A stretch of 64,000 nucleotides of DNA from Alphaproteobacteria bacterium (GTDB lineage: Bacteria; Pseudomonadota; Alphaproteobacteria; UBA8366; Aestuariispiraceae). The notes under the pieces were generated by a model. The model had not been told where the DNA came from, ran no database searches, and saw only the letters and a list, made by a program, of their open reading frames with translations. The DNA lies in contig JASJDC010000013.1 of NCBI GenBank assembly GCA_030065235.1, positions 1 to 64,000 on the forward strand. Direction: 5' to 3'. The translations under genes and the position numbers were made by a program. Of this stretch, positions 140-29,656 are shown in pieces; within the stretch, counting starts at the first letter, position 1, and every line of letters begins with the position of its first letter.

Positions 140-1060
140 CTCCTCCAAGCCGATCATCGCTTCCTCCAACCGCTGATCGATAAGGTCGAGGAAGAGGAGC
201 AGGTCAAATTCGGTTCTTTTCCGCGCTTCATGCACCATCATGTCTTTGATGTACTGTATCCGCACCATCGGGTGTGGATGACTTGTCGCCAGTTCCAGGT
301 CATAACGGGCGCCTCGAATATAGTTGAACAAAACAAACAGCGCGATGACCATGAATGATAGGAGCTGCGTGAACAGGTCTTTATCTTTATCAAACAGTAT
401 CTCGTGTTTCGTGAGACCTGATTTCTGCTTTGCCAGATCGTCGAGATAGTCCATCAGCAGGACGACCGCTACAGCGTCTGCGTCGTACTCCCAAGATTGG
501 TCGCGTTCCCTCTGATCCGTTGGACGGCTACCTACTGCAAACAATTCGCTGAATTCGGCGCGTCCGTAATAGTGCCGCGTCCCTTCTGCGTGTCCGGCGA
601 CCACATGCCCTAGTTCGTGGAGCGCGATGAAGGCGAGGCACATATCCGCGAATTTGGCGGATGCGATAAGACGCTCGTTGGTTAACGATACCCGCCATAC
701 GTCGCGGTCACCGAAGTCCTTCGGGTCGGTAATGAATTGAACGGTATCGTTCCTCGCGCCTACGGCTTCGTCTGAAGGCGTGAGCCACGGCATCACAGCA
801 GATTGCGCAAAGAAGCGGCCAAACAGCATCGCCGTCAGTAATGGAACCGAAGCGGAGATTTTAATCAGATACCGGCTTTGTCCGAGGCTGGCGGAAGCGT
901 TGAACACTGGGTCGTCAACAAAGATTGTCGAGACAGGTTTCTTGGCCTTGCCATACGCTTTCTGAACCGCGGCTCCGGCAACAGTGTTCACCTTCAGCAT
1001 GCGCTCGAAGACCGCTCGTACCTGTTCGTTCTCAATCCTACTGAAATCGAATGTCGCCAT
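137..1060 (-). CDS. M48-like zinc metallopeptidase, C-terminus fused to IS end
   Basis: A putative membrane-associated zinc endopeptidase of 307 aa from the ATG at 1060; a TTG 42 codons upstream is also open but less convincing. The zinc motif HELGHVVAGH lies near residue 148 and a WEYDADAVAV segment near residue 190 supplies the likely third ligand (glutamate) in the EXXXD style of M48-type gluzincins. A hydrophobic stretch around LLSFMVIALFVLF could be one membrane segment, followed by a SHPHPMVRIQYI motif like the HPP..RI motif of M48 enzymes. The stop codon TGA at 139-137 coincides with the first bases of the IS terminus, so the native C-terminus may have been replaced when the IS inserted. 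Substrate and role are unknown, and there are no obvious functional partners beside it. Confidence 0.6.
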   Translation of the reverse strand: MATFDFSRIENEQVRAVFERMLKVNTVAGAAVQKAYGKAKKPVSTIFVDDPVFNASASLGQSRYLIKISASVPLLTAMLFGRFFAQSAVMPWLTPSDEAVGARNDTVQFITDPKDFGDRDVWRVSLTNERLIASAKFADMCLAFIALHELGHVVAGHAEGTRHYYGRAEFSELFAVGSRPTDQRERDQSWEYDADAVAVVLLMDYLDDLAKQKSGLTKHEILFDKDKDLFTQLLSFMVIALFVLFNYIRGARYDLELATSHPHPMVRIQYIKDMMVHEARKRTEFDLLLFLDLIDQRLEEAMIGLEE

Positions 1061-1205
1061 ATGTACCTGCAAGGATGTGTGTCTTGGCACTTGGTCGTGC
1101 CGCCCGTGCCGGTCAACCAAAGAGAAAACGAACAAGGTTTGAGAAACGCGACTGGTGAGGTTGTCGTGAAGGTGACTTGCGGCCAAGCGCTTAAGACTCG
1201 CGCGT

Positions 1206-1421
1206 ATGAACGCCCTTCAACCATCCGCGTCCAAGCCTTCCCAGGAAGACAGGCTCGAACGATCCCTTAGAATCGCTGCGCGCGCTGTACAGAGATATGA
1301 GGGAACCGCCTTCGAGGCGGACGCCGTAGCTCTGTTCCTGCGGCTGGAACGGGTTCATCTTGATCGGCAAACCCTTACCGCTGCTAAGAGCCGAGCGCGG
1401 AGCCTCCTGGTTTCGGAATAG
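1206..1421 (+). CDS. Small hypothetical protein (71 aa)
   Basis: An ATG-initiated open frame, divergent from the metallopeptidase, encoding a charged, helix-prone protein with a regular R/L/A pattern (RLERSLRIAARAVQRYEG...LFLRLERVHLDRQTL). No family is recognised and there is no clear ribosome binding site upstream. It may be a real small regulator or a remnant. The amino-acid composition looks more protein-like than the competing frame on the opposite strand, but the evidence is weak. Confidence 0.3.
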   Translation: MNALQPSASKPSQEDRLERSLRIAARAVQRYEGTAFEADAVALFLRLERVHLDRQTLTAAKSRARSLLVSE

Positions 1422-1968
1422 CACTTTCCGCTTGGGTCATCGTTTCGAGACGGCGCATCATTTCCAATCTCTCAAAGTAGTTCTGCTCGTGACCATCGTT
1501 GGTCTGTTGGTCTCGTTAGGGGGACTTCGTTACCGCCTGAATTTTGGCAAACATTTTGGCAAACATTTTGGGAAACATGTTCAGAAAATCATCCCGGATT
1601 TCTCATTAAAAACAATTGCTTGCCCGGTTCTGATATCCTGGTACGGCGCACACCCGCTCCGCCATTGTTTGTCTCGCGCTTGTTTCGCTTCGCTCAACCG
1701 CTCCGACGGGGCGGCGAACCGTCGCCGGGCCGCGGTCGCGGCCTTGCGGAGAGTTCGAACTTCGTCTCTCACTTTCCGCCATGCCCTCATGTAGCGAAGC
1801 GATAGGGCGACACAAACAAGCCCCTTGCGGCTTGGCGTCGGGATGGTATGGACGCACTCCGTCTCTGTGCGAACGTATGTCTCGCGCTTGTTAGGCTGCG
1901 CCGGACAGCGACTTCAGTTTGCTCACGCGGGGTCAGCCCATTCAGAGGAAGGGGATGCATCCCATTGC
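1422..1968. other. 547-bp gap without a supportable gene
   Basis: No convincing coding frame, tRNA or known RNA is visible. It holds a 12-bp triplicated repeat (1541-1576), a repeated segment TGTCTCGCGCTTGTT near 1670 and again near 1879, and a perfect 12-bp palindrome GGGATGCATCCC at 1952-1963, just downstream of the mcr stop. The low-complexity, mixed-frame character suggests decayed sequence between the IS-flanked gene and the mcr/pcs operon. Confidence 0.5.
1541..1576. repeat. Three tandem copies of a 12-bp unit
   Basis: The unit ATTTTGGCAAAC occurs at 1541-1552 and 1553-1564, with a third copy carrying one C-to-G change at 1565-1576. It lies in non-coding sequence. The array is too short and unspaced to be CRISPR. 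It could be replication slippage or an iterated protein-binding site. Confidence 0.75.
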
Positions 1969-4900
1969 TTAAACGGTCATTGAGGTGCCGCGGTAGATCC
2001 GCGCCCGATATCGAGAATCCTGAGCATCCGGCAACGGCGCGCCGACCAGGAGAACGGCCCGTGCAAATCGTGACAACTCCTCCTGATGCTCTTCTTCGTC
2101 GCGCGGCTCCTCAGAACGAACACGGCGCGTCAGATTAATCTGGTTGGTCGGCACGTCATGAACAAGGCGTTCGTTCTCGACCGCAAGTGTGGCCGTGAAC
2201 GCGTGCAGCGTTGTCTTAACAAAGTTCGCCAGAGCGAATGCCGGCCCACTGGCGCCGTAGGGCACATCGGGCGTCACGAGAACGAGCTGACAATTGTCAT
2301 AGAGCGACGCCTTGCGCGAAACACGGAAATGATTTGTCAGGTTCTCCTCGACGACGGCGCCAAACTCCTCAGGCGTCAGAAGGTTTTCATTTTCGAATAA
2401 CCGGTCGGGCAACGGCTCCATCGGCATGGAAACCACGGTTGTCGGCTTAGGCCAGGATGTCAGCGCCCGGTCCATCGCGCCTTCGATATCGTCTCCGGCG
2501 GTTTCAACGTGAATAGCGTCGGTCGGACAGCCCTCCAACAGCGGGAGAACGGCCTCGCCCCCCTTCTTGGTCCGGGCGATAATGACGATGTGAGACACAC
2601 CACAATCGACAATCATAGTGCGCGCTGTCGCAGCGATATAGTCCGCGAGATGATCGCCGACAAACCACACCGTCTTCCCGCGCATCGCCTCCAGCCGGTC
2701 CGACTTCGGGCTCCCAAACATTTCACGCTCGGTCGTCGAGCGTTCGACACGAAGCCCGCCCGACGGCATGAAAGTCTCTCCGCTCACCGCACGGTCAGCA
2801 AGGAAGAATACGGTCGCTTGGGCGACGTCCGCTTCGGTCGGCATCGCGCCCAGATGCAATTGCGAGAGCACGCCCTTGCTGACCTTTTCCGCTTCCTTGT
2901 TCACCAAGTCATCGGGCAAGAAAGGCAGGTCTTCCGGCGGCGATGAAACCAGCCATTCGGCGTGCAGCGCTTCACCATCGGGGGCGTTGCGCAGATTTTC
3001 CGACTCCTGGAGATAGCCGCCGCGGCGTAGCCGTGAGAGAAGCCGTTGGGCAAGCGCCGGCGTCAGGAGGAATTGGTCCCAGGTACAGACGCCGTCGCCT
3101 TGTCGTGCGAATTCCAGCGCCAGCTGTCGCAACTCGTTCGGCGCCTGCGCGTCATGCGACAACACGCTGATGCTGTTGCGCGACAGACGGTCCAACACCT
3201 TGTCCACGGACGCGCCATCGCGCACCGCGCGAATGAGCGCGGCATAGGTGGCGTTCAGGCGCTTATTCTCGAGGATCAGCCGGGCTCGGCGTTTGAACAG
3301 CCCAGGGCGCCCGGCGCTGCCGGCCAGCCGGTCGCCCGCGACCGGCCCCGGCGCGATCGCGTTGCACTGAACCTCAGGCCCCAAAAACCGGGAAAACGCC
3401 TCGACCATCGCCCGTTGCCCCGCCTTCGACGCGGCGTAATCCGCGCGATTGGGATAGGCGACCGCGAGAAACTTCTCGCCGCCGAAATAGGACGACACGT
3501 TCAGGATGTAGCCGCTGCCCTGAGCCTTCATGCTTGGGACGGCTTCATGCATCAAAAGGTAGTTGGAGATCAAATTCGCGTTCAACGTGAAGCGCCAGGC
3601 GTCGAGATCCATATCGACGACCATGTCCTCGGCGCCGGCGACGCCCGCATTGTTGATCAGGTAGTCGACCTTCCCGAACTCCTCAATTGTTGCGGTGTAG
3701 GCCTTCCTCAAGGATGCAAAGTCACTGACGTCGACATCCGGGATGATTTTGACGCGCCGATCGACACTGGCCATCCCCATATCCAGAAGTTCGTCGACAA
3801 TCCGGGCGCGCGCCGCTTCTAATTCGCTGGAACGGCGGGCCACCATGACGACATTAGCGCCGGCCAGGGCGAGCAGCCGAGCGACCTGACCGCCGATCCC
3901 CGCCGATCCACCGGTAATGAAGGCGACCTTGCCCAAGTGAAGGCCGGAAATATTCTCCGCGGCCCCCATCATCGCCCGGCGTGCGCCGGTTCCCATGCCG
4001 ATACTGCTCGGCAACCGCAGATCGATTTCAGCGATCTCCTGATCCTTAAAGGCGATCCGGGTCGCATGTCCTGCGGCGAAGCGGGTGTTTTCCTCATCCT
4101 TGTTCGTGTATCGGATGATCTGATTGCCCCAGACCGGCAGTTTCTGCATGCCTTTGCCCACATTGACGCGCGACTCGTCGCGCCAAATCCGGATCAACTG
4201 CTCGACGCCAGCCGAGAGGACCTCGTTATAGGTCTCTTTCCCACCATCGGAGGTATTGGAGATATAGACGAACCGCGGGGCGCGGGTGAGGTCTTCCCGC
4301 CCCTTCCAGTATCGGCTCATCGTCCGGGAAACCGCCATGGCCCCGGTCAGTTCAACATCCATGAACTCGTTGACGGTGGCGTCGTCTGCGTCCAACAACG
4401 ACCCGACATAGTGATTCGGCGGCTTCACCGGCAGGATGAACGCGCTGGTGATCGGCCCATGCTCAGCCGAGTAGGCCTGGAGCAGTTCTTCCATCTTGCC
4501 GGGCTCGGTACGGTTGAGCCTCTCAACCTCAAGCCCCGGACCGATATTCTGAGCGCGAATTCTGGCGCGCGCCTGATCGACGTCGGCCTGGCGGGTCATG
4601 CCAAGCAGGACGCGTGCGCCGCAGTCGATTTGGATGGCGGCTATTTCAAGCGCGTCGCGCCAATCCTCGCCGGCGAGGATAAGCACGCACATGCCGGCGC
4701 CGTCGAAAGACCGCATGGAGGGACGCGTTAGGAAAGTCGAATGATCGTCCTTCCGCACAACCATGCCATGGGTGACATCGAGTTCAACGCCGTTTAATGC
4801 GCCCGAGTCCTGGCTTCCTAGAAACACGCACGCATTCGCAATGTCGATCGGCGTCGGCAGAGTGTCATCCCGCGGTCTTCCATCGACCGCGCGCTTCAGC

Positions 4901-5646
4901 GTCATCTTACCGAGAAAGAACTCCGCTGTTTCGCCATCCTTGTTGCCCTGCAACTCATCCATCGCGGCGAAGACGGTGCGAATGCGCTCACTTTCGATCG
5001 GACCGGGGAAGATGTTGTTCACGCGTATGCCGCGCTGACCAAGCTCGATGGCGAGCTGGCGAGAGAACGCATTGAGGGCGGCTTTCGGCACGACATAGGG
5101 GGCGCGCCCATAGTACTGTTCATGCGAAAAAATCGTTGAAACATTCACGATGGACGCGCCGACCGGCATATAGGGCGCCGCGAGACGCGCCGTATTCCAT
5201 GTTACGCCAAGGATGTTGCGCATCGCGTCCGGGACCGTTTCGGTGTCGCCGCAGGCCGCCATTTCCTCGCGGGTCAGCGGGACGTTTTCAATGGGCTGCT
5301 TCGGACCGGCGGACCCGGCGTTATTGACGAGAACATCGATCCGAACGAATTTCTCCGCCGCTTTCGCCAGGGCCTCCCGCACGCTATCCGGGTCGCCGCC
5401 GTCGAATATCGCCGTATGCACCTGCCCCGCCGGCGCGCCCGTATCCGCAAGCACCGCTTCGCGCGCCGCCTCCATACGCTCCTTCGAGCGGCCGGACATG
5501 ATTACGCGCGCGCCCTCCAGGACAAAGCGCCGTGTGATCACGCCGCCAAGATTTCCAGCCGCGCCTGTGATGAGGCAAGTCTGTCCGGCAAGCCGGCCTT
5601 TCTGATTGTTCTCGGCGGTTTCCGTCTCGGCTTTTTTGCCTGGCAT
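1969..5646 (-). CDS. mcr: Bifunctional malonyl-CoA reductase (3-hydroxypropionate pathway)
   Basis: Cytosolic NADPH-dependent enzyme reducing malonyl-CoA to malonate semialdehyde and then to 3-hydroxypropionate. At 1225 aa it matches the Chloroflexus aurantiacus enzyme (about 1220 aa), with the same double architecture of short-chain dehydrogenase halves. The N-terminal half (about 1-565) has the nucleotide motif TGAAGNLG near residue 27 and active-site YVVPK near 185, and corresponds to the semialdehyde reductase part. The C-terminal half (about 566-1225) has TGGSAGIGGQ near 580, NNAGVAGAEDM, NVSSYFGGEKF and YAASK near 735, and corresponds to the malonyl-CoA reductase part. Further matches include NVSTIFS, FPGPIESERIRTVF and the LTRRVRSEEPRDEEEHQEEL tail. 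A GGGGAG ribosome binding site precedes the ATG. It lies 54 bp behind pcs, so the two are almost certainly cotranscribed. Family assignment is from recalled sequence; activity is inferred. Confidence 0.95.
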   Translation of the reverse strand: MPGKKAETETAENNQKGRLAGQTCLITGAAGNLGGVITRRFVLEGARVIMSGRSKERMEAAREAVLADTGAPAGQVHTAIFDGGDPDSVREALAKAAEKFVRIDVLVNNAGSAGPKQPIENVPLTREEMAACGDTETVPDAMRNILGVTWNTARLAAPYMPVGASIVNVSTIFSHEQYYGRAPYVVPKAALNAFSRQLAIELGQRGIRVNNIFPGPIESERIRTVFAAMDELQGNKDGETAEFFLGKMTLKRAVDGRPRDDTLPTPIDIANACVFLGSQDSGALNGVELDVTHGMVVRKDDHSTFLTRPSMRSFDGAGMCVLILAGEDWRDALEIAAIQIDCGARVLLGMTRQADVDQARARIRAQNIGPGLEVERLNRTEPGKMEELLQAYSAEHGPITSAFILPVKPPNHYVGSLLDADDATVNEFMDVELTGAMAVSRTMSRYWKGREDLTRAPRFVYISNTSDGGKETYNEVLSAGVEQLIRIWRDESRVNVGKGMQKLPVWGNQIIRYTNKDEENTRFAAGHATRIAFKDQEIAEIDLRLPSSIGMGTGARRAMMGAAENISGLHLGKVAFITGGSAGIGGQVARLLALAGANVVMVARRSSELEAARARIVDELLDMGMASVDRRVKIIPDVDVSDFASLRKAYTATIEEFGKVDYLINNAGVAGAEDMVVDMDLDAWRFTLNANLISNYLLMHEAVPSMKAQGSGYILNVSSYFGGEKFLAVAYPNRADYAASKAGQRAMVEAFSRFLGPEVQCNAIAPGPVAGDRLAGSAGRPGLFKRRARLILENKRLNATYAALIRAVRDGASVDKVLDRLSRNSISVLSHDAQAPNELRQLALEFARQGDGVCTWDQFLLTPALAQRLLSRLRRGGYLQESENLRNAPDGEALHAEWLVSSPPEDLPFLPDDLVNKEAEKVSKGVLSQLHLGAMPTEADVAQATVFFLADRAVSGETFMPSGGLRVERSTTEREMFGSPKSDRLEAMRGKTVWFVGDHLADYIAATARTMIVDCGVSHIVIIARTKKGGEAVLPLLEGCPTDAIHVETAGDDIEGAMDRALTSWPKPTTVVSMPMEPLPDRLFENENLLTPEEFGAVVEENLTNHFRVSRKASLYDNCQLVLVTPDVPYGASGPAFALANFVKTTLHAFTATLAVENERLVHDVPTNQINLTRRVRSEEPRDEEEHQEELSRFARAVLLVGAPLPDAQDSRYRARIYRGTSMTV

Positions 5647-5700
5647 TGCCTCGTCTCCCCATTCTTGCGCCGCCCAAAAGCGCCTTGCACATCAACCTTC

Positions 5701-8700
5701 TTATGAAGAGCGACTCATCGACCAATATTCAAAGAGCTCGTCGCGCGTTCGCAGTCCCATGGCCGGCAAGGCGTGGTTCACGACATAAGTCGCCCCGGCG
5801 TGGGTATTGTCCCACATGGCTTGATGCGCGCGCGGCAGGTCTTGCCAAGGCACAACCGTGGGCTCCGTGACATCCAGCAATCCCGACGCGACCATGCGGT
5901 TCATCATGGTCACCTCGTATGCATTGCAGAGATGGGTGCCCAGGATACGCGCGGTCGGCATCAGGATACGCCGTTGGCGCGTCCAAACCTGGGGCGCATA
6001 GAAGGTATAGCGGCGCCCGGCCATGTTTTCGCAATAAACAACCCGTCCGCCATTCGGCCTGACGAGCGATGTTGAAACGCCAAGGGTGTCGACCGCCGCC
6101 CGTTCCAGGATAACATCCGGCGCCCCGCGCGGGTTGCCAGCGGATCGAAGGTAGCGGCCGACGGCGGCGCCGAACGGTTTCATCGTGAGTTGCTGATAGT
6201 CGCGGACGCCGCGTTTGAAGGTCTCGATATCGGTGCGCGCGTCCGGCAGTCGCGGCAGCGTCTCTGGCCATTCGAACTTATCGCCATCGCGCCGCTTCAA
6301 CCCTTCCAGGCTGACAATGCCTTCGACCGTGTCTTCCAGGCCCAAAGACTGTAGAAACTCGCGTTGACCATCCGTCGTCGTAACAACCACAACGCGCGCC
6401 TTGAACAGACGGGCGGCTTCGATCATTTCCATGCCGACAGGATCGGCGAGGTCCTCCGATCCGGGACCATAGTAGATGAGAACGCACTCCCCGCCGCGCA
6501 GCGCCGCGCGTTGCAGCGCTTCCCCTGGGCTGCAGTCACCCTCTTTTCCAACGAAGCTAAAATGATAGCCGGAAGAGGCGCCGTAAAACGCCAACGTTCC
6601 GCCTTCGGCCAACAGTTGGAAACTGCGCGGAAACGACCGTTCGCCGGCATGGCTGACGACAAAGTCGGCAAGCTGTCCGTTGTTGATCGCGCGATAACGG
6701 TCCAGCAGCGGCTCTCCGGCGGCCTCCCAAGCGGCGACATCGGCGGGATCGTCTGGGACCGGCGTATAGCATTCGGCGATATCCGCGTCCGTCCGGTTGA
6801 TCGCGCCGACCGCGCCTTGCGATTGCACGAAATCGACCCTTTCGGCGCTTGAGACGAGCCCCGTCACCGCCAGTCCCGACCGGACGCTGCTTTTCAAGGC
6901 GTCGAGACCGGTGCCGGTGGCGGCGCCTTCGACAAAGAGCGTTTTCCCGGGCTCAATCTGCAAGGTCGTGAACAGGCAGCGCGTAATCGTGCCAAGGTTC
7001 AGCGTGTATGCGCCCGCTTGTTCAAGTGTGAGACCGTCGGGCGGCCGATGCAATTGCGGGCCCTGCACCGTCAGGAACTGGGCGTGGCTGCCGGTTTCGG
7101 TCTCATAGCCCTGGATCGAGAACCCGGCGAACATCGGATCATGACCGGCTTCCGGGGCGAGCAGATCGCTGGTCCCGGAATAGATTGCGACCAGATCCCC
7201 GACCTTCAGCCGCCCTTCGGAGCGCAACTCACTGCCCAAGGCGGCGACAAGCGCCAGTCCCCCTGACCCGGTGATCTGAATATCCTCTTCATGATAGTCG
7301 AAGGGAGACACCGGGACGCCGGTGAGGGCCCAATTATCGTTGAAATTCACTTCCGAGGTCAGGACATAGACCAGCGCTTCATTGGCGGCAGGCTGCTTGA
7401 CGGGCGCGATCAGCTCCTGCTCATGCGTAATCGGCGGGCCAAACTGCGGCGCCCCCGTATCCGGGTCTTTGGCGACGCCGAAGGCGAACTGAGACGCGGG
7501 GATCGGCGTAACGCCCGGGTAGAAGGGCGCGCCCAAAGGCAAGAGGTCGCCGGACTCGAGCAGCGCGTCCCGCTTGGACGCGTAGTCCGCTACATCGTGA
7601 ACCGCGTTCCGCCGCACAGGCAACGGCGGGCTGCGCTTCTCCATAAACTGGTCGATCCCGGTCTTGCCGCCTTCCGGATCAATGACAGCCTCCGCAAAGC
7701 AATCGGCTTCGCGGATATAGCCGTTGTCGGCGCCTTCCTCCCAACCGGTGCGCACGGCGTCCAGCGCCCGCGCGGCGGCTTTGGCGCGCCCGGCCCATTC
7801 AAGTTGGCCCAAAATACGCTTGAGGAAGCCGTCTTCCAACACAGTGTCCAGATCGATCGGGCTGGGCTTCTCCCATTCCACTGTCATCGCATGCCGTGCG
7901 GCGAACGCTTGGCCAAGCGCGCTCGCTTCGCCAAGCGCTGCATAATCACGGACCATGGCATGCGCCTCCGCCAGCGCGTCATGCGCGCCTTCCGTGATCT
8001 GATCGATGGCGCCGATGGCGTATGCTTCATCCGCAGAGATCGACCGGCCGCCGAGGATCAGGTCGAGCGCGTCTCGCACACCTTCCGGCCCGCGCTTGGA
8101 CGCTAGCAAACGGGGCAGACGCTGAGTCCCGCCATAGCCCGGCAGCAAGCGTAGATTGATTTCCGGCTGGCCAAAGCGGGCGGTCGCTTCGGCGATGCGA
8201 TAGTGACAGGCGAGCGCGAATTCCATGCCGCCGCCCAGGGCGACGCCCTGGATCGCCGCGACGCACGGCTTCTGCATTGTCTCGATACGGCTGAAGGCCA
8301 GTTGCGCGTTGTTGGGCAGCGCCTTCGCTTCGGCGACCGTGTTCACCTCCTCGAGCAATTGCCTGATGTCGGCGCCCGCCACGAACGAGGAACCGCCGGC
8401 GCCAGTGAAGATCACCGCCGCGACATCGTCCTTCCGGGACAAGTGATCGACCACGATGCCAAGCTCATCCAGCGCCCGTTCGTTCAGCGCATTCACTGGT
8501 GGATTGGCGATCGTCACGGTGGCGACACGCCATCCGGGTTTGACCGTATTATACTGCACCAGGAAATACCGGTAACGCTGAAACAGCGCCTGTTCATCCG
8601 CCAGCTGCTGGCGATCGCGCCACTGACTGACGACCTGCGCCAGCTCGTCCAGGCTTTCGGGATTTCTTAAGGTCGATACATCGCCCAGGTCGTCGCCCGT

Positions 8701-11217
8701 GACGACCGCGCGAACCATGCGCCGCATATATTTACCGCTGCGGGTTTCGGGGAAAGCGGGGACCTCCAGGAAATCCGACGGGACCGCAACCGCCCCTTTT
8801 TCCGTGCGCACCAAATTGCCGAGCCGGTTCTCGTCCTCGCGCGTGATCTTTCGATCGGGCGCGCAGGTGATGAAGGCGATCGGCGTGACGCCCTTTTCGC
8901 GATGCGGCGCGCCGACAACGATGACATTGCCGACGGGCGAGTTCGGATTGAGCGTCTTGTCGCGCAGGATAGCGCCTTCGATTTCTTCGGTGCCGATCCG
9001 GTGGCCGGACACGTTGATCACGTCATCCGAGCGGCCGTGCAGCGAGAATGACTCATCTTCATGCCGGATGGCGAAGTCGCCCTGGGTGTAGGCCCAGACC
9101 CCGCGCCATCGCCGCCAGTAGGTGTCGGCGTAACGTTCGGCGTCTCCCCGCCACCCCGACGCGACCCGCACCCCTTTGCCCGTCTGTTCGATCTGAAATC
9201 CCTGGGTGTTTCCCCATATCGTGCGCGCCAGGTAGGGATAAGGCGCGGCGATGACGATCTCGCCCTTTTCGGCGGCGTCGGCGCGCCGCCAGGGTTTGCC
9301 GCCATCGCTTTCATCGCGCCGGGCTTGGACCACATCCGCCGCCATGGCGCCGTCCTTGTCTTCGACCCACACATCGCCGAAAATCCATGGCAGCGGATAA
9401 GTGTGCGCGTTCGCTTGCAGCGGAAAATCGCCATTGCCGTAGAAATGCGTCCAGACGATGCCGCCATGTTCCGTCGCCCAATAGCTGTTGATGTACCAGG
9501 GCGTCACATGCTCCATCGCAAAGGCCTGAACCGCGGGCGAGGTCGGCTCGGCGCAGAAGGTCGCGACTCGCAGCGACGACAGATCGTAGGATTTCACGTC
9601 CCGCAGGTTTTCCGGGTCCTGCATGATCGTCTTCAAGAAGGTCACCCCGGCCTTGAAGATCTTGACCTTGTAGCGCTCGATGATCGAAGCGAAGCGGCCC
9701 GCATGCGGAAAGACGGGCGACCCTTCGGAAATGATCGTTGTCACCCGCGTCAGCAGGGACGCCGCGATCAAATAGCTCTGGCCTGTAATCCAACCGGGAT
9801 CGGCGACGACATAGATGACATCGCCGGGCTGCGCGTCGAAGGAAATCGGCATGGTCGCCGAGACGCCTGCGCAATAGCCGCCATGCACATGCACGACGCC
9901 TTTCGGTTTGCCCGTCGATCCGGACGTATAGATGATGAAATTCGGATATTCCGCATCGACCGGCGTCGGGCGCGACGCCGCCCAGACGGCTCGGACGAAG
10001 TCACTGTCCGGCAGCGCCATCAGGGAATTTTCGTCTGTCACGGCGGAGCCGGCCGCACGGGCGGCCTGAAGCAGTTTTTCGCCCGCCGCGTCGGTCAGGT
10101 CGTGGCTCCAATGATCGCGCGCGTCGTTCCAGACCAGATCGGGCTGCGCGGTGTGGCGGACAACAATGACCGCGTCGATCCGCGGGGGCGCGGCGACAAG
10201 TTTTGACGCCAGTGTGATTCGGGCGTTCGCCGCCTGTTTCGCATCCAGCGCATCGGATTGCGGGAGGGACGCAATCGCCCGTCCAACGCCCCGCATAACG
10301 TCAGAGCGTTCCACCGTCACTTCATCCGCCAAGGACTGTGTCACCTCAGCGCGAACATGCTCGATTTGGGACGCCGACAGACCGAGCGCGTTGTCCGCCA
10401 GCGCTTCGCCCAATAGAGTCAGGGCGACGCCCACCGCGATGAAGTTATCAAGGGCCGGATCGGTGTAGCTCGTCTTGAAAGGAACGGCCTGGGCGTTTCG
10501 ATAGCTGCCATCCGCCGTGATGACGACGCGGGCGCCGGCGTCTGCGATCCTATCCGACAGGGTCTTGTCACTGAAACCGCCAAAGACCGGCGTATAGACG
10601 ATCCCCAGTCTCTTGGCCGCCTCGGTCCAGTAAATCTGCTCCGGGATGCTCGGCATATTGAGCGCGATACGGTCGCCGGGGCCGAGCCCGAGCGTCTGCA
10701 GGGCGATCGCGCATTTCGCGCTTTCCAGCAGCAGCTTTTTCCGAGGGATGGAATACCCGTCGACCGGCGCGCCGCGTCCGTCATTCTCGGACATGTTCCA
10801 GCGGTCGCCCTCGTAGATCAGGGCCGGCTCTTCGCCAAATCCATCTAAGACATGCCGATCAACCTCGTTGAACGCGGCGTTCGTCATGCCGCCGCGAAAC
10901 CAGGCGAACATCGGCGCATGGCTGTCATCCAGCGCGATGTCCCACGGATCGAAACTCTCTGGAAGGTCGAGGGACGCCGGCGCGCCCGTCACCGCATGCC
11001 AGCCGCGCCAACGCTCTTGCGCCGCGTCCCAGAAGGCCCAGACGCCGTCCTCGCCCTCCTCTTCAAGGAGCCAGCAAATCTGACGTTTCGCCAAGGCGCC
11101 ATGAAACGCCCCGGGGTCGGACGTACAGGCCGCCCGCATAGCCAGCCATGCTTCCCGATCTGTAATATCGTTCTGCACGGGTGTTGGCGCTGTGGCCAAG
11201 GTGCTCAAGGAAAACAC
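5701..11217 (-). CDS. pcs: Trifunctional propionyl-CoA synthase
   Basis: Converts 3-hydroxypropionate with ATP, CoA and NADPH into propionyl-CoA through 3-hydroxypropionyl-CoA and acryloyl-CoA inside one polypeptide. Its 1838 aa compare with about 1820 in Chloroflexus. Part 1 (about 1-880) is an acyl-CoA synthetase: IIYTSGSTGKPKGVV near residue 430 and the catalytic-lysine motif ETRSGKYMRR near 828. Part 2 (about 890-1190) is an enoyl-CoA hydratase: VAGADIRQLLEE near 950 and GVALGGGMEFALACHYR near 995. Part 3 (about 1330-1838) is an MDR-type enoyl-CoA reductase with EVNFNDNWALTGVPVSPF and the nucleotide loop EGAATGTGLDA near 1436. The start is taken as the GTG at 11217, because homology to family members extends upstream of the first internal ATG; no strong Shine-Dalgarno is visible. 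First gene of a pcs-mcr operon. Confidence 0.95.
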   Translation of the reverse strand: MFSLSTLATAPTPVQNDITDREAWLAMRAACTSDPGAFHGALAKRQICWLLEEEGEDGVWAFWDAAQERWRGWHAVTGAPASLDLPESFDPWDIALDDSHAPMFAWFRGGMTNAAFNEVDRHVLDGFGEEPALIYEGDRWNMSENDGRGAPVDGYSIPRKKLLLESAKCAIALQTLGLGPGDRIALNMPSIPEQIYWTEAAKRLGIVYTPVFGGFSDKTLSDRIADAGARVVITADGSYRNAQAVPFKTSYTDPALDNFIAVGVALTLLGEALADNALGLSASQIEHVRAEVTQSLADEVTVERSDVMRGVGRAIASLPQSDALDAKQAANARITLASKLVAAPPRIDAVIVVRHTAQPDLVWNDARDHWSHDLTDAAGEKLLQAARAAGSAVTDENSLMALPDSDFVRAVWAASRPTPVDAEYPNFIIYTSGSTGKPKGVVHVHGGYCAGVSATMPISFDAQPGDVIYVVADPGWITGQSYLIAASLLTRVTTIISEGSPVFPHAGRFASIIERYKVKIFKAGVTFLKTIMQDPENLRDVKSYDLSSLRVATFCAEPTSPAVQAFAMEHVTPWYINSYWATEHGGIVWTHFYGNGDFPLQANAHTYPLPWIFGDVWVEDKDGAMAADVVQARRDESDGGKPWRRADAAEKGEIVIAAPYPYLARTIWGNTQGFQIEQTGKGVRVASGWRGDAERYADTYWRRWRGVWAYTQGDFAIRHEDESFSLHGRSDDVINVSGHRIGTEEIEGAILRDKTLNPNSPVGNVIVVGAPHREKGVTPIAFITCAPDRKITREDENRLGNLVRTEKGAVAVPSDFLEVPAFPETRSGKYMRRMVRAVVTGDDLGDVSTLRNPESLDELAQVVSQWRDRQQLADEQALFQRYRYFLVQYNTVKPGWRVATVTIANPPVNALNERALDELGIVVDHLSRKDDVAAVIFTGAGGSSFVAGADIRQLLEEVNTVAEAKALPNNAQLAFSRIETMQKPCVAAIQGVALGGGMEFALACHYRIAEATARFGQPEINLRLLPGYGGTQRLPRLLASKRGPEGVRDALDLILGGRSISADEAYAIGAIDQITEGAHDALAEAHAMVRDYAALGEASALGQAFAARHAMTVEWEKPSPIDLDTVLEDGFLKRILGQLEWAGRAKAAARALDAVRTGWEEGADNGYIREADCFAEAVIDPEGGKTGIDQFMEKRSPPLPVRRNAVHDVADYASKRDALLESGDLLPLGAPFYPGVTPIPASQFAFGVAKDPDTGAPQFGPPITHEQELIAPVKQPAANEALVYVLTSEVNFNDNWALTGVPVSPFDYHEEDIQITGSGGLALVAALGSELRSEGRLKVGDLVAIYSGTSDLLAPEAGHDPMFAGFSIQGYETETGSHAQFLTVQGPQLHRPPDGLTLEQAGAYTLNLGTITRCLFTTLQIEPGKTLFVEGAATGTGLDALKSSVRSGLAVTGLVSSAERVDFVQSQGAVGAINRTDADIAECYTPVPDDPADVAAWEAAGEPLLDRYRAINNGQLADFVVSHAGERSFPRSFQLLAEGGTLAFYGASSGYHFSFVGKEGDCSPGEALQRAALRGGECVLIYYGPGSEDLADPVGMEMIEAARLFKARVVVVTTTDGQREFLQSLGLEDTVEGIVSLEGLKRRDGDKFEWPETLPRLPDARTDIETFKRGVRDYQQLTMKPFGAAVGRYLRSAGNPRGAPDVILERAAVDTLGVSTSLVRPNGGRVVYCENMAGRRYTFYAPQVWTRQRRILMPTARILGTHLCNAYEVTMMNRMVASGLLDVTEPTVVPWQDLPRAHQAMWDNTHAGATYVVNHALPAMGLRTRDELFEYWSMSRSS

Positions 11218-11525
11218 CGAATTCTATCGATACCGGCCAACAGCACTTAGGATGGACCTCCCCGATTGATCACTTTGGATCAAGTAAACAGCACGGTCGC
11301 CCCCATGGAAAATGACCTATCTCAATACCATTTCCCTGCAATGCAAATTTATGCGTCAGAATGATGAATTTCGCGCTGCGCATCGGTTCGCCTGACCGAC
11401 GCGTTGACTAACTTCCGCCCATACTCAGTCGTTCCCCAAGCGCTACACGAGGCCGCTTACCTCTGCCCAGGCTACTCGGCGCGGCGAACAATCTGGCGAG
11501 AGGCGAACCGCCCTGGAACGACCGT
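11218..11525. other. 308-bp pcs promoter region / gap
   Basis: No gene recognised. It separates pcs from a dehydrogenase transcribed in the same direction and should carry the pcs promoter. The only clear element is the inverted repeat at 11266-11283, described separately. The stretch 11290-11370 is AT-richer than its surroundings, as expected of a promoter. Confidence 0.5.
11266..11283. promoter_or_regulatory. Inverted repeat TTGATC-N6-GATCAA, candidate pcs operator
   Basis: Perfect 6-bp arms with a 6-bp spacer (ACTTTG), centred about 57 bp upstream of the pcs start codon. The half-site resembles FNR/FixK half-sites (TTGAT/ATCAA), but the 8-bp gap between those pentamers is wrong for FNR (4 bp). 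A different dimeric regulator is more likely. Confidence 0.4.
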
Positions 11526-12557
11526 CTAATTCGTATCGACCGGGCGCGAGCGCATCAGCGCTGCGGTTTCCCGTTCGGCGCGTTTGCACCGTTGCGGCGG
11601 CAAACCCCGATCCATCAACGCCATATCCTCCAGCACCATATCGCCCATGCGCTTGAACGCGACATCGAGAGCGCCAGCCCGATGGGCGGACCGCACGAAC
11701 CCATCGAGGGTTCGGACCGGATGGTCCAGCGGCAACGGTTCCTCGGGAAAGACATCGCTCGCCGCTGTGATATGACCGCGTGCGACAGCGTCGACCAGCG
11801 CGTCAAAATCGACGACATCGGCGCGGCTGAGCAGGATGAAGGACGCGCCGCGCCGCATGCGGGCGAATTCCTCGGCGCCGAGAAAACCGCGATTCTCGGT
11901 TGTGACCGCGGCGACGACAAAGACGAAATCGGAGCTCTCAAGGACCTCATCCTGACGGGCCGGGACGACCCCATGCTCCCGCAGGATCGAGGGCGGCAGC
12001 CAAGGGTCGCAAACTTTGACGGTGCAGCGGAACCCTGCAAGCAGACGGTTGAGCGCCCGGCCGAGATCGCCGAAGCCGATGATGCCGACATCGGCGCCGC
12101 TGATCAGCCGCGCCTCTCCGTTGCCCGCGCCGCCCCATTTCTCCCGCCCGGCGCGGAAGTCATTGTCGGCCGGCGTGATGCCGCGGGCCAGATCGAGTGC
12201 AAGGCCGAGACCGATCTCCGCAACCGGTACGGCAAAAACCGCGCCCGTCGTCAGCACATGAATGCCGCGCGCAAAGATCGTGTCATAGGGCATGTTGTCG
12301 AGCAGATTCGATTCCACATTCAGCACCGCGCGTAGCGCTGTCATGCGCGCTAGGGTTTCAGAACCGATCGGCGGTTGACCGAGCACGTAGCGCGCCGCCG
12401 CAAGCGTCTCAGCGTCGAGGCTCGCGACCGACGCGGCGTCTGTCTCGACTAGGGTGTAGCGCTCGCGCAACGCCGCCAGACGCTCCGGCGTGAAAATCAG
12501 GTCGAGACTGCGCGGCTCCGGCGCGCAGATGACAACCGGCTTGTTATTTTCGCTCAT
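11526..12557 (-). CDS. D-2-hydroxyacid dehydrogenase family oxidoreductase
   Basis: NAD-dependent cytosolic enzyme (343 aa) interconverting 2-oxo acids and D-2-hydroxyacids. The Rossmann motif GIIGFGDLGRALNRLL lies near residue 158. The family catalytic trio is recognisable: Arg in LLSRADVVDFDAL, Glu in DVFPEEPLPLDHP and His in RSAHRAGAL. A strong GGAGGT ribosome binding site lies 5 bp before the ATG. It diverges from lacI and a sugar-transport operon, and the shared intergenic region holds two LacI-type operators, so it is probably regulated with that operon. A role in oxidising or reducing a sugar-derived acid is plausible, but the substrate cannot be named from sequence. Confidence 0.85.
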   Translation of the reverse strand: MSENNKPVVICAPEPRSLDLIFTPERLAALRERYTLVETDAASVASLDAETLAAARYVLGQPPIGSETLARMTALRAVLNVESNLLDNMPYDTIFARGIHVLTTGAVFAVPVAEIGLGLALDLARGITPADNDFRAGREKWGGAGNGEARLISGADVGIIGFGDLGRALNRLLAGFRCTVKVCDPWLPPSILREHGVVPARQDEVLESSDFVFVVAAVTTENRGFLGAEEFARMRRGASFILLSRADVVDFDALVDAVARGHITAASDVFPEEPLPLDHPVRTLDGFVRSAHRAGALDVAFKRMGDMVLEDMALMDRGLPPQRCKRAERETAALMRSRPVDTN

Positions 12558-12581
12558 GATCCACCTCCGCGGCGCGAGAAA

Positions 12582-12614
12582 TAAATCGATTTACAGCATG
12601 CATAAACCGATTTA
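12582..12614. promoter_or_regulatory. Paired LacI-type operators in the divergent promoter
   Basis: TAAATCGATTTA (12582-12593) is a perfect 12-bp palindrome with the central CG step typical of LacI-family operators. TAAACCGATTTA (12603-12614) is a near-identical second copy with one mismatch. The centres are 21 bp apart, two helical turns, so both lie on the same DNA face between the dehydrogenase and lacI genes. The probable ligand-responsive repressor is the adjacent LacI protein. Confidence 0.75.
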
Positions 12615-12657
12615 GCGTTTTGGACTAGCCGATGAAAATCGTCAGTCAGGGGATCTT

Positions 12658-13725
12658 GTGCCAGGGAGAGACAAACAACGACGCGCCACAATCCATGACG
12701 TCGCGCGCATGGCGGGCGTCTCGGCGGCGACAGTCTCGAAAGTCCTCCGCGGCGTCGCCAGCGTTAAGCAGGAAAACGCCAAACGCGTCCATGACGCTGT
12801 GAAAAAGCTCGGCTATCGAATGGACCCGCTCGCGTCGGGCCTGCGCAACGAACAACGCCGGATTATCGGCGCGGTGGTCCCCGATCTTGAAAGCCCGTTT
12901 TTCGGCGCGTTGGCGACAGGTCTGGAAAAAGCGGCCGAAGAAGCCGGCTATGCGATGATCATCGCCAGTTCGCGCGAAAGCGAGGCCCGAGAGGCTGACC
13001 TGGTCGCGCGGATGAATGATTGGCGTGTCGCCGGCACGATCCTGACGCCGGTGCGGTCCGAGCGCGGCCTGGGCGCTGAGAGGCTTCACGCGCTTAATAT
13101 GAAAGCGGTTCTCGTGGACCGGGTGTCCGCCGATCGGCGCTTCGACACCGTCACCGCCGACAATTACGCCGCCTCGGCGTCAGTCGCCGATTTACTGCTC
13201 GGCGCCGGCCATTCCCGCATATTGCTGCATGGCGCAACCCGGATTTCCAAATCCGTGCGCACGCGCCTGCAAGGCTTTACCGAACGCGCCCGCGCCGTCG
13301 GATCGAAGGCGCGGATCGATACGCTCCTCTCCGAAGAGGACCCCGAGGCCCAGCGTGACGCAGTCTTCCGATATTTTGAGGGTCTGGATCCGGCGGAGCG
13401 GCCGAGCGCCGTCTTTTCTCTCTCGCAACATTCGACGCTTCTGGTTCTGTCCGAATTGCGCCGACGCGGCGTTCGCGTGCCCGCCGACATCGCGCTGATC
13501 GGATTTGACGACGCGGACTGGATGCAAACGACTTGGCCGTCGATTTCAGCCGTGGCGCAGCCGGTGGCCGCCATCGCCGAGCGCGCCGTCGCCGTGTTGC
13601 TGGCGCGTGTGGAGGGCGAGAATACCGGTTTCCCGGTCCAGCATCTGGAGCCCTGCACGCTGATTGCGCGGCAATCCACAGGGCCGGACCGCGTCCCGGC
13701 GATGAAAACCCAATTCGCAGAATAA
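12658..13725 (+). CDS. LacI-family transcriptional regulator
   Basis: 355-aa repressor with an N-terminal helix-turn-helix and hinge (TIHDVARMAGVSAATVSKVL near residues 11-30, then KLGYRMDPLASGLR) followed by a periplasmic-binding-protein-like effector domain (IIGAVVPDLESPFFGAL...; IALIGFDDADW). The start is GTG at 12658 behind AGGGGA. Gene order lacI-binding protein-permease-ATPase-epimerase implies it senses the transported sugar or a derivative. The operators 40-75 bp upstream suggest autoregulation and control of the divergent dehydrogenase. Confidence 0.93.
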   Translation: MPGRDKQRRATIHDVARMAGVSAATVSKVLRGVASVKQENAKRVHDAVKKLGYRMDPLASGLRNEQRRIIGAVVPDLESPFFGALATGLEKAAEEAGYAMIIASSRESEAREADLVARMNDWRVAGTILTPVRSERGLGAERLHALNMKAVLVDRVSADRRFDTVTADNYAASASVADLLLGAGHSRILLHGATRISKSVRTRLQGFTERARAVGSKARIDTLLSEEDPEAQRDAVFRYFEGLDPAERPSAVFSLSQHSTLLVLSELRRRGVRVPADIALIGFDDADWMQTTWPSISAVAQPVAAIAERAVAVLLARVEGENTGFPVQHLEPCTLIARQSTGPDRVPAMKTQFAE

Positions 13726-17484: not shown

Positions 17485-18882
17485 TCAGGCCGTTCGAACC
17501 TCGCGCATCGGCATGACATTCCTCTTCGTTTCTCTGGGAATGTCGGCGAAGATGATGGCTGGGGCTAAGTCTTTGCTTTGCTGACAAACGCCCTTTAAGT
17601 CCGATAGCGGAACATCGAGCTTTCTCTGGCCGGAACGTCCGGCGCGGCTGACAATCGTGATCGACGCGCTTGGCGCCAAGCCGGCATCCAGCAAAGCCGT
17701 TTCGATCCGCGCGGCCGCGCCGACCCCCATGTAGAAGGCTGCAGCGGCGCCCGGTTTCAGACAGCGGCCCAACTCTGCTGGCGCGGCGCCGTCTGCGCGT
17801 TGCGCCGTCGCCAGCACGATCGCGTCGGTTTCTCCCCGTCTGGAAAGCGGCCGGCCGATCGCCGCCGCCGCGGCGCTGGCGGCCGTGACGCCCGGCACCA
17901 GTTCATAGGACAATCCGGCCTGTTTGAGCGCTGAAATCTCCTCATCCGCGCGGCCGAAGACGCCCGGATCGCCGCATTTCAGACGGACGACCCGCATGCC
18001 CTTCTTGGCCGCCGACACGATCAGTCCATTGATGCGATCTTGAGGCCATGCATGGGCCCCCGGCCTTTTTCCGACATAGACGCGCTCGCAATCGCGTCGC
18101 GCCAGTTCGAGGATCTCAGGGTCCACCAAACGGTCGTAGAAGATAATATCCGCTTCTTGCAGCCGTTGGACGCCGCGCATGGTGATCAAGTCGGCCCCGC
18201 CAGGCCCGGCGCCGACCAGGCTGACCGGCGCGCTTTCCTCTTGCGGGAGGACGCCTTCATTTTCGATCGCCATATTGATCTCGCGAAACGCCTCGCGCTC
18301 TCTGCCGGCGGCGAATAGGGCGCGCGGGCTCCCGCCATAGGCCCAAGCCCAGAACGCACGGCGCCGGTCCGCCGGGATCATCGCTTTCACGCGCCCGCGC
18401 AACCGACCGCAGAACGCCGCCAGATCGCCGATGCGCGGCTCGAGCATCGCCTCGATCGCGGTCTTGGTCATCCGCGCCAAGAGCGGGGCCGCGCCTTCCG
18501 TCCCAATCGCGACGACCAAAGGCTGGCGATCGACAATCGACGGCGTATAGGCGAGCGACATATCCGGCTGGTCGACCACATTGACGAGGGCGCCCGACGC
18601 ACGCGCGATCTCGGATACCGCGGCGTCGGCGCCAGGGCAGCCGGTCGCGACGAAAGCGATCGCGCAATTGTCGAAAAAATCTGAATCGATGGCGCTGCTG
18701 CGGCCGGCGACACGGCCCTGTTGGACCAGCGCTTCGATTTCCGGCGTGATCGTATCAGCAGCGACCTCGATATCGGCTTCGGTCTTTAGGGCCAGCCGTA
18801 ACTTCTGCGCGGCGCTTTCACCGCCGCCGACAATGACGATACGGCGGCCTTCAGTCTTCACGAACATGGGAAAGTTTTTCAT
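17485..18882 (-). CDS. cysG: Siroheme synthase (dehydrogenase/ferrochelatase + uroporphyrinogen methyltransferase)
   Basis: 465-aa trifunctional enzyme making siroheme, the prosthetic group of NirB. The N-terminal half (about 1-205) is the precorrin-2 dehydrogenase/sirohydrochlorin ferrochelatase: FPMFVKTEGRRIVIVGGG, NVVDQPDMSLAYTPSIVDRQ and VVAIGTEGAAPLLARM. The C-terminal half (about 215-450) is the SAM-dependent uroporphyrinogen III methyltransferase: VSLVGAGPGGADLITMRG, YVGKRPGAHAWPQDRIN, VRLKCGDPGVFGRADEE and VPGVTAASAAAA. Last gene of the nitrate cluster, 23 bp behind the TrpD2-like gene, so cofactor supply is coexpressed with nitrite reductase. It faces the epimerase gene convergently with only 28 bp between stops. 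Confidence 0.94.
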   Translation of the reverse strand: MKNFPMFVKTEGRRIVIVGGGESAAQKLRLALKTEADIEVAADTITPEIEALVQQGRVAGRSSAIDSDFFDNCAIAFVATGCPGADAAVSEIARASGALVNVVDQPDMSLAYTPSIVDRQPLVVAIGTEGAAPLLARMTKTAIEAMLEPRIGDLAAFCGRLRGRVKAMIPADRRRAFWAWAYGGSPRALFAAGREREAFREINMAIENEGVLPQEESAPVSLVGAGPGGADLITMRGVQRLQEADIIFYDRLVDPEILELARRDCERVYVGKRPGAHAWPQDRINGLIVSAAKKGMRVVRLKCGDPGVFGRADEEISALKQAGLSYELVPGVTAASAAAAAIGRPLSRRGETDAIVLATAQRADGAAPAELGRCLKPGAAAAFYMGVGAAARIETALLDAGLAPSASITIVSRAGRSGQRKLDVPLSDLKGVCQQSKDLAPAIIFADIPRETKRNVMPMREVRTA

Positions 18883-18905
18883 GGCTGTCTTGTCTCCATC
18901 TTCGG

Positions 18906-22516: not shown

Positions 22517-22533
22517 AGCTTGGGGCCGTTTGA

Positions 22534-22899
22534 CTACGCGGCGGATAAGACGGATGCGGAACGCAAAACGCGCCCGGTATCAAGGAACAGGGCCCCGTTC
22601 TCTACCTTGACCGGGAAGGTGCGCACCGACCCTTCGTCGGCGCCCTGCGCTTGACCGGTTTCGAATGAGATCACCCAGTTATGCAGCGGGCAGGTCACTG
22701 CATCGCCATGAACGATGCCGTCGCTGAGCGGCCCGTTCTTGTGCGGACAGCGATCCTCCAAAGCATAGACCGCGTCCTCGAAGGTTCGGAAGACGGCCAC
22801 GCACCCGGCATCCGTCTTCACCACGCGCGCGCCGCGCTTGGGGATATCCTCGAGACGGCCGATTTCGACCCAACGGTTCAAAGGCGTCACTTGATCCAT
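22534..22899 (-). CDS. nirD: Nitrite reductase (NADH) small subunit, Rieske-like
   Basis: 121-aa protein with a Rieske-type fold that pairs with NirB. The sequence retains DRCPHKNGPLSDGIVHGDAVTCPLHNWVISFETG, including the CPH and CPLHN positions of a Rieske [2Fe-2S] site; many NirD proteins lack these, so cluster binding is possible. The start is the ATG at 22899, 5 bp after nirB, chosen over the longer upstream frame that would overlap nirB. It supports the siroheme nitrite reductase that converts nitrite to ammonium. Confidence 0.92.
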   Translation of the reverse strand: MDQVTPLNRWVEIGRLEDIPKRGARVVKTDAGCVAVFRTFEDAVYALEDRCPHKNGPLSDGIVHGDAVTCPLHNWVISFETGQAQGADEGSVRTFPVKVENGALFLDTGRVLRSASVLSAA

Positions 22900-22904
22900 C
22901 GCGG

Positions 22905-25346: not shown

Positions 25347-25347
25347 G

Positions 25348-27021: not shown

Positions 27022-27036
27022 AACGCACCCTCCCCT

Positions 27037-28122: not shown

Positions 28123-28162
28123 CGCAATAGCTCCGTGAAGTAAGAGATGTTTGGAGAAGGCC

Positions 28163-28194
28163 GGGCTTGGCGGCGTATAGGAACCGCCAAGCCC
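28163..28194 (-). terminator. Hairpin between nrtA and nrtB
   Basis: Perfect 11-bp stem GGGCTTGGCGG / CCGCCAAGCCC with a 10-nt loop, downstream of the nrtA stop. There is no strong U-tract, so it is more likely an mRNA-stabilising or partial-attenuation element than a full terminator. Confidence 0.6.
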
Positions 28195-28230
28195 GCGCCT
28201 CGTTCGCCAGGGCGATCGGCTATTCGACGA

Positions 28231-29598: not shown

Positions 29599-29656
29599 CA
29601 CAACTCCTTCGCTCGGCCCGTTCGAGCGTGTCGTCGGGCCCTTGAAAAAAAATGAA

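What the first reader, a model, noticed from the sequence alone, without database searches (positions are those of the whole stretch)
1969..11217. Chloroflexus-type mcr and pcs as a two-gene operon in a proteobacterium
The window encodes full-length propionyl-CoA synthase and bifunctional malonyl-CoA reductase back to back, 54 bp apart, with all catalytic signatures intact. These are hallmark enzymes of the 3-hydroxypropionate bi-cycle, best known from green non-sulfur bacteria; homologues in a few marine proteobacteria are known, but their physiological role is unresolved. Fusion lengths are fully conserved, which argues for use and not decay. The remaining bi-cycle enzymes are not in this window.
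Basis: partly seen in the sequence, partly recalled or inferred. Interest (0 to 1): 0.85.

Follow-up and report, generated by a model that had tools for sequence, protein, structure and literature searches.

The report
CO2-assimilation gene pair in aerobic phototroph
This bacterium carries two intact giant enzymes that turn acetyl-CoA-derived malonyl-CoA into propionyl-CoA; the pair is already known from light-using aerobic bacteria, and here it again sits in a genome that also encodes a photosynthetic reaction centre.

Summary
The window holds intact genes for propionyl-CoA synthase (pcs, 11217-5701) and bifunctional malonyl-CoA reductase (mcr, 5646-1969), 54 bp apart, with the catalytic residues in place. 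The pair is not rare: pcs stands directly before mcr in 74 of 81 loci; six others lack upstream DNA and one (L070) is a real exception. It is a new member of a known kind, best known from Erythrobacter-type aerobic phototrophs.

New here is the context. In 159 genomes of the Sphingomonas ursincola family all 14 mcr carriers encode a type II reaction centre, against 18 of 145 others. The window's own genome has one too. It also has methylmalonyl-CoA mutase and isocitrate lyase; no RuBisCO, crotonyl-CoA carboxylase/reductase or mesaconyl-CoA C1:C4 transferase was found, so a closed bi-cycle is not shown. Best reading: an open, light-assisted route from acetyl-CoA to succinyl-CoA that takes up CO2 and NADPH. 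Against it: the two closest mcr relatives (L070, L077) come from MAGs in which no reaction centre was found, and no PpsR-type control site was found. In passing, two Azospirillaceae-labelled MAGs appear to hold nearly the whole bi-cycle gene set.

The parts
5701..11217 (-). pcs: propionyl-CoA synthase, 1838 aa trifunctional fusion (3-HP:CoA ligase, 3-HP-CoA dehydratase, acryloyl-CoA reductase)
   Evidence: phmmer to 6eqo 3068 bits over 18-1837; Pfam AMP-binding, ECH_1, ADH_zinc_N in order; K829, E999, E1019 conserved
1969..5646 (-). mcr: bifunctional malonyl-CoA reductase, 1225 aa, two SDR halves
   Evidence: phmmer to 8hi4/8hjw about 1100 bits full length and 6k8s 1006 bits; Pfam adh_short in two stretches; both S-Y-K sets the same in 71 of 71 rows
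5647..5700 (-). 54-bp pcs-mcr spacer with a purine-rich ribosome-binding-like stretch before the mcr ATG
   Evidence: sequence printed; same gene order in relatives

Best explanation
An intact pcs-mcr operon of the kind found in aerobic anoxygenic phototrophs. MCR reduces malonyl-CoA with 2 NADPH to 3-hydroxypropionate. PCS activates this with ATP, dehydrates it and reduces it with NADPH to propionyl-CoA. With the usual acetyl-CoA and propionyl-CoA carboxylases (not searched for here) and methylmalonyl-CoA mutase (found), acetyl-CoA plus 2 bicarbonate becomes succinyl-CoA. In this genome, with a reaction centre but no RuBisCO or crotonyl-CoA carboxylase/reductase found, the route most likely works as an open co-assimilation pathway that replenishes C4 acids and uses surplus reducing power when light supplies ATP. 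Shown: genes, residues, co-occurrence. Inferred: flux, direction, link to light.
For: Full-length enzymes with residues in place. Reaction centre in own genome: two Photo_RC proteins with nitrogenase-like bch reductase subunits beside them. All 14 mcr carriers of a 159-genome family sample have Photo_RC over the cut-off, against 18 of 145 others (Fisher p about 1e-11 by genome; by genus 7 of 7 against 12 of 82, p about 7e-6; no phylogenetic correction). 46 of 50 named carriers have it (50 picked by me of the 80 loci). Methylmalonyl-CoA mutase present; no RuBisCO match; Ccr in 0 of 80 at E<=1e-100. A Porphyrobacter study reports 3-HP bicycle genes up by day (PMC10674011, passages).
Against: No flux or expression data for this organism. 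The two closest mcr relatives, L070 and L077 (about 80%, partial or split), lie in MAGs with no Photo_RC match. No PpsR-like site before pcs in the window and none enriched in relatives: 3 of 64 against 2.3 expected. The association was measured in another family; in the own family it is 2 of 2 against 4 of 12 (p 0.16). Isocitrate lyase is present, so C4 acids can also be replenished otherwise. Some carriers have RuBisCO: 5 of 50 rows over 200 bits.
Confidence: 0.62

Rival explanations
1. The organism uses the pair mainly to take up 3-hydroxypropionate or related C3 acids, with PCS as the working enzyme and MCR supplying or draining 3-HP as a side role.
For: PCS alone converts 3-HP to propionyl-CoA (established for the family; recalled). 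Methylmalonyl-CoA mutase is present to use the product. The nearby D-2-hydroxyacid dehydrogenase and LacI-type regulator (11526-13725) would allow substrate control. The two closest mcr relatives lie in MAGs without a reaction-centre match.
Against: mcr stays with pcs: 74 of 81 loci have pcs directly upstream, six others lack upstream DNA. No third neighbour is shared with the window among the 40 largest clusters. The link to reaction-centre genes is not expected for simple 3-HP uptake.
Confidence: 0.16
2. A complete autotrophic 3-hydroxypropionate bi-cycle, the second half filled by enzymes elsewhere in the genome.
For: Own genome has an Mch homologue (427 bits to 4e3e, 399 to 8hgn) next to a malyl-CoA-lyase-like gene on contig C8, and 14 kb away a MaoC / acyl-CoA dehydrogenase / CoA-transferase III / CitE-like cluster.
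Against: No Mct orthologue at E<=1e-40; the own CoA transferase scores 66 bits to 8apq but 241 to a formyl-CoA transferase. The lyase is distant from the L075 lyase (26%). Mch-like two-domain genes also occur in own-family genomes without mcr.
Confidence: 0.08
3. A replacement for the glyoxylate shunt or ethylmalonyl-CoA pathway during growth on acetate.
For: Ccr was found in none of 80 genomes at E<=1e-100, own included (at most 20 candidates a genome were scored).
Against: The own genome matches isocitrate lyase over both halves of the model in one 446-aa frame (G000:C2:484851-486089); 13 of the 14 own-family genomes match about as strongly, own included, G005 only weakly.
Confidence: 0.06
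4. A transferred operon kept by chance, without present function.
For: Patchy distribution: mcr in 2 of 43 genomes of the order; pcs in 2 of 398 of the phylum sample. Broken copies exist in relatives (L070, L095).
Against: 9.2 kb open in both genes, residues in place, GC3 0.74-0.75 like several neighbours, and a 76-78% identical copy in a second genus of the family with the same order.
Confidence: 0.05

Closest known systems
pcs-mcr operon of Erythrobacter sp. NAP1 and other aerobic anoxygenic phototrophs
   Same: Same two genes and order; NAP1 locus L084: MCR 66%, PCS 73% identical; NAP1 PCS ligase domain was used in PMC11599936 (passages); reaction centre in the genome
   Different: Different flanking genes and another family. 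Among full-length rows the nearest is MAG bin.17 (L028, 76-77%); the partial or split MCRs of L070 and L077 are closer, about 80%
Chloroflexus 3-hydroxypropionate bi-cycle
   Same: Both hallmark enzymes, as full-length bifunctional and trifunctional fusions (that Chloroflexus has them is recalled)
   Different: No Mct orthologue found in the own genome; MCR C-terminal half closer to 6k8s than to the other solved halves
Burkholderiales 3HP bi-cycle gene run (L075; complete sets in MAGs of this order are reported in PMC9802188, section 7 read)
   Same: pcs-mcr in the same order, MCR 57%
   Different: There the pair sits in a longer run: CoA transferase III, HpcH/HpaI lyase, MaoC hydratase, pcs, mcr, fused biotin-dependent carboxylase; here the pair stands alone

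Membership tests
Bifunctional malonyl-CoA reductase (MCR) | Two tandem SDR halves, about 1220 aa, each with Ser-Tyr-Lys | tested here: met
Propionyl-CoA synthase (PCS) | Ligase, hydratase and reductase domains fused in about 1800-1850 aa with ligase Lys and hydratase Glu pair | tested here: met
Both enzymes | NADPH-dependent activity on malonyl-CoA / 3-hydroxypropionate | not testable with these tools
   needs purified protein
pcs-mcr operon of aerobic anoxygenic phototrophs | pcs directly upstream of mcr, same strand | tested here: met
   73 of 81 loci, 74 with the weaker L087 match; six others without upstream DNA, L070 an exception
pcs-mcr operon of aerobic anoxygenic phototrophs | Host genome encodes a type II reaction centre and bacteriochlorophyll genes | tested here: met
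   two Photo_RC proteins and nitrogenase-like bch reductase subunits in own genome
Complete 3-hydroxypropionate bi-cycle | Mesaconyl-CoA C1:C4 transferase (Mct) | tested here: not met
   no match at E<=1e-40 in own genome; the query (L075) finds Mct in other genomes, one of them checked at 545 bits to 8apq
Complete 3-hydroxypropionate bi-cycle | Mesaconyl-C1-CoA hydratase (Mch) and malyl-CoA lyase | tested here: inconclusive
   Mch homologue clear; adjacent lyase only distantly related
Complete 3-hydroxypropionate bi-cycle | Mesaconyl-C4-CoA hydratase, malate CoA-transferase, acetyl-/propionyl-CoA carboxylases | not tested
   no genome searches left (12 of 12 used)
Ethylmalonyl-CoA pathway | Crotonyl-CoA carboxylase/reductase | tested here: not met
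   0 of 80 genomes at E<=1e-100, at most 20 candidates scored a genome; control Caulobacter vibrioides found

The most novel reading that the evidence does not exclude
The pair is a mobile two-gene CO2 co-assimilation module selected by aerobic phototrophs, and in this genome it is completed by a non-orthologous second half (the Mch/lyase-like pair plus the MaoC / CoA-transferase III / CitE-like cluster 14 kb away on contig C8). That would be a variant bi-cycle without classical Mct in a bacterium in which no RuBisCO was found.
Probability: 0.08. Interest if true: 0.78.

Novelty: new member of a known kind. Interest (0 to 1): 0.4.

Why it matters
A 2025 review states that no true aerobic anoxygenic phototroph grows autotrophically by fixing CO2 (PMC12654162, one passage). 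If an intact malonyl-CoA-to-propionyl-CoA route occurs mainly in phototrophs, as the family sample here suggests, it points to light-assisted CO2 co-assimilation that RuBisCO surveys miss. It also gives a direct test: delete mcr or the reaction centre and follow 13C-bicarbonate.

Tried and rejected
PpsR-type control of the operon (TGT-N12-ACA, recalled motif, in 380 bp around the pcs start): 3 of 64 relatives against 2.3 expected, none in the window. A first count, 5 of 68, included two wrongly cut rows (L037, L091) and the duplicate loci L012/L014, and was replaced.

Glyoxylate-shunt replacement: rejected for the own genome (isocitrate lyase present). In Sphingomonadales that call cannot be read as absence, because its E<=1e-20 limit cuts through weak matches (about 7e-21) to frames of about 550 aa.

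RuBisCO as an alternative to mcr: no exclusion seen. Matches over 200 bits in 5 of 50 mcr-carrier rows and 1 of 30 other rows; weaker matches in 3 further carrier rows. At least one genome is in that list twice (L026 and G571).

Mesaconyl-CoA hydratase by PF19315 alone: too broad, it hits single MaoC proteins in many genomes; only two-domain proteins were followed.

Recent transfer by composition: operon GC3 is like several neighbours, so no sign. Conserved third gene: none shared with the window among the 40 largest clusters; a GGDEF/EAL gene and others recur in up to 22 loci.

Rows dropped from trees and residue counts: 24 entries too short or fragmented, listed (10 MCR, 14 PCS), leaving 71 and 67; among them are L070 and L077, the closest MCR relatives. 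L012 and L014 were left out as duplicates of L027 and L028. Of nine PCS positions counted, K1442 varies (29 K, 38 R) and H1523 has one gap (L095); no role was assigned to these two beforehand.

First motif counts for YxxxK (28 and 55 of 71) used too strict a pattern; the column count replaces them. The genus test counted one genus below the Photo_RC cut-off; one search replaces it.

Full report
What is there. Two long frames lie on the minus strand, 11217-5701 (1838 aa, GTG start) and 5646-1969 (1225 aa, ATG), 54 bp apart. Pfam gives AMP-binding, ECH_1 and ADH_zinc_N in order on the first and two short-chain dehydrogenase stretches on the second. Against solved structures the first matches 6eqo (1850 aa; Erythrobacter NAP1 propionyl-CoA synthase, origin recalled) over its whole length at 3068 bits. 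The second matches full-length bifunctional malonyl-CoA reductases 8hi4 and 8hjw at about 1100 bits; its C-terminal half matches 6k8s (recalled as proteobacterial) at 1006 bits, against at most 692 bits for the other solved halves. The window is the first 64 kb of contig C9 of a 4.18 Mb genome; mcr ends 2 kb from the contig end.

Intactness. In an alignment of 71 MCR rows the two Ser-Tyr-Lys sets (170/184/188 and 719/737/741) and R223/R773 are invariant. In 67 PCS rows K437, E583, K829, D950 and E1019 are invariant; E999 and R1007 are so but for one X; H1523 has one gap; K1442 is K in 29 and R in 38. Residue roles are assigned from general knowledge of these families. Short or broken rows had been left out.

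Relatives. One scan of named genomes found 90 relatives and kept the best 80, all Pseudomonadota by title: mostly Sphingomonadales (Erythrobacter, Porphyrobacter, Blastomonas, Sphingomonas), with Azospirillaceae- and Rhodospirillaceae-labelled MAGs, Maricaulaceae, Caulobacteraceae, one Phyllobacteriaceae and some Burkholderiales. The two peptide patterns used need not reach Chloroflexota, so their absence means nothing. In 73 of 81 loci (window included) pcs lies directly before mcr on the same strand; L087 adds a pcs end found at a looser limit. Six of the remaining seven begin at a contig edge (L040, L069, L077, L089, L093, L094). L070 is a true exception: 3.8 kb upstream without pcs, and its mcr is split in two frames. 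L095 shows a pcs running into a shortened mcr. No other gene is shared with the window among the 40 largest clusters.

Trees. The rows are all from Pseudomonadota. MCR and PCS each pair the window with MAG bin.17 (L028, which is G007 of the same family) with full support. In the MCR tree MAG IP29b_bin.162 and two Azospirillaceae-labelled MAGs come next (support 86), then the Erythrobacter NAP1 pair (support 80); the other Erythrobacter and Porphyrobacter, apart from L092, lie in a different part. Transfer between lineages is the simplest reading, but duplication and loss are not excluded. L070 and L077, too broken for the tree, have the MCR most like the window's, about 80%. MCR and PCS path lengths agree (Spearman 0.91 over 65 shared rows): the genes travel together. 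These are quick trees with flagged long branches.

Phototrophy. The own genome has two Photo_RC proteins (pufL and pufM by pairing) with three nitrogenase-like reductase subunits beside them, one with a protochlorophyllide-reductase domain. In the 159-genome sample 32 have Photo_RC over the cut-off; all 14 mcr carriers are among them, against 18 of 145 others. By genus it is 7 of 7 against 12 of 82. Fisher p is about 1e-11 and 7e-6, without phylogenetic correction. Of 50 named carriers (50 of the 80 loci, picked by me for spread and for isolates, because the tool takes 50) 46 have Photo_RC, two of them only as fragments. The four without are MAGs (L032, L034, L070, L077), and two of these are the window's closest MCR kin; their completeness was not shown. 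In the own family both carriers have it, as do 4 of 12 others, which is not significant.

Rest of the pathway in the own genome. Methylmalonyl-CoA mutase is present and so is isocitrate lyase. No RuBisCO match and no crotonyl-CoA carboxylase/reductase at E<=1e-100 (20 of 33 candidates scored) was found. An Mch homologue (427 bits to 4e3e, 399 bits to 8hgn) lies next to a malyl-CoA-lyase-like gene on contig C8. Mct is not found at E<=1e-40. A MaoC / acyl-CoA dehydrogenase / CoA-transferase III / CitE-like cluster 14 kb away resembles C5-dicarboxylate catabolism (comparison recalled); its CoA transferase scores 66 bits to 8apq but 241 bits to a formyl-CoA transferase. So the bi-cycle is not shown to close. 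Carboxylases, malate CoA-transferase and mesaconyl-C4-CoA hydratase were not searched for.

Mechanism. From established chemistry (recalled): acetyl-CoA is carboxylated to malonyl-CoA, MCR makes 3-hydroxypropionate with 2 NADPH, PCS makes propionyl-CoA with ATP and NADPH, and a second carboxylation plus mutase gives succinyl-CoA. Two bicarbonates enter and three NADPH are consumed per acetyl-CoA. In a phototroph without RuBisCO this would supply C4 acids and remove reducing power. This flux is inferred. No PpsR-like control site supports direct co-regulation with photosynthesis genes.

Known work. PMC10674011 (passages) states that Porphyrobacter ULC335, like NAP1, has key 3-HP bicycle enzymes that could allow CO2 co-assimilation, with bicycle genes up by day. 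PMC9802188 (section 7 read) reports bi-cycle sets above its completeness threshold in Burkholderiales MAGs, all genes in two Gemmatimonadota MAGs, and cites hallmark enzymes in Alpha- and Gammaproteobacteria. PMC6593406 (passages) describes the reverse case: a partial bi-cycle without mcr and pcs. Hence the pair is known; this is a new member in another order than Sphingomonadales (kinship given as same class only). Searches of the held open-access library listed no paper that I could see stating the carrier/reaction-centre count; most hits were seen only as listings, and most subscription papers are not held.

By-product. Two Azospirillaceae-labelled MAGs (L018/G586, L019/G587) hold mct, mch, two mcl-like genes and a 290-295 aa protein in the place expected for mesaconyl-C4-CoA hydratase on one contig, and pcs-mcr, mutase and Photo_RC on others. 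The 290-aa protein has only a weak dehydratase-region match and the 295-aa one none. Mct of L125 scores 545 bits to 8apq. Malate CoA-transferase and carboxylases were not looked for. Both bins show several Photo_RC sets and G586 also has RuBisCO, so mixed bins are possible.

Noticed in passing
L125 (G587, MAG PL25a_bin.129) 4396-11953; L126 (G586, MAG PL23b_bin.89) 217-7833: Glyoxylate-salvage half of the 3HP bi-cycle (mct, a 290-295 aa protein in the meh place with weak or no Pfam match, mch, two divergent mcl-like genes) in two Azospirillaceae-labelled MAGs that also have pcs-mcr, mutase and reaction-centre genes. Bins may be mixed.
   Followed up: partly
L075 95-19357: Burkholderiales MAG with CoA transferase, lyase, hydratase, pcs, mcr and a 1857-aa fused biotin carboxylase/carrier/carboxyltransferase in one run; the carboxylase is 84-88% identical in L074, L078 and L094.
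   Followed up: partly
L095 5483-12584: Erythrobacter MAG MO_005.B18: pcs stops at about residue 1515 and runs straight into mcr from about residue 254, with a further gap in mcr; deletion or assembly error.
   Followed up: no
L070 3832-7525: mcr about 80-82% identical to the window's, but split over two frames, without pcs upstream and in a MAG without a reaction-centre match.
   Followed up: partly
G000 contig C8, about 84.9-87.1 kb and 100.7-105.6 kb (L110, L111): Mch homologue beside a malyl-CoA-lyase-like gene; 14 kb away a thiolase-like / MaoC / acyl-CoA dehydrogenase / CoA-transferase III / CitE-like cluster.
   Followed up: partly
window 17485-31067: Likely assimilatory nitrate/nitrite region: sirohaem synthase, molybdopterin oxidoreductase, nitrite/sulphite reductase-type protein, ABC transport genes and an NMT1-like binding protein.
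   Followed up: no
window 28147-47629: Stretch with lower GC3 (0.55-0.61 in the six genes measured, against 0.73-0.83 in the other eight), partly surface-glycan-type genes such as a Maf-type glycosyltransferase, cytidylyltransferase and UDP-sugar dehydrogenase.
   Followed up: no
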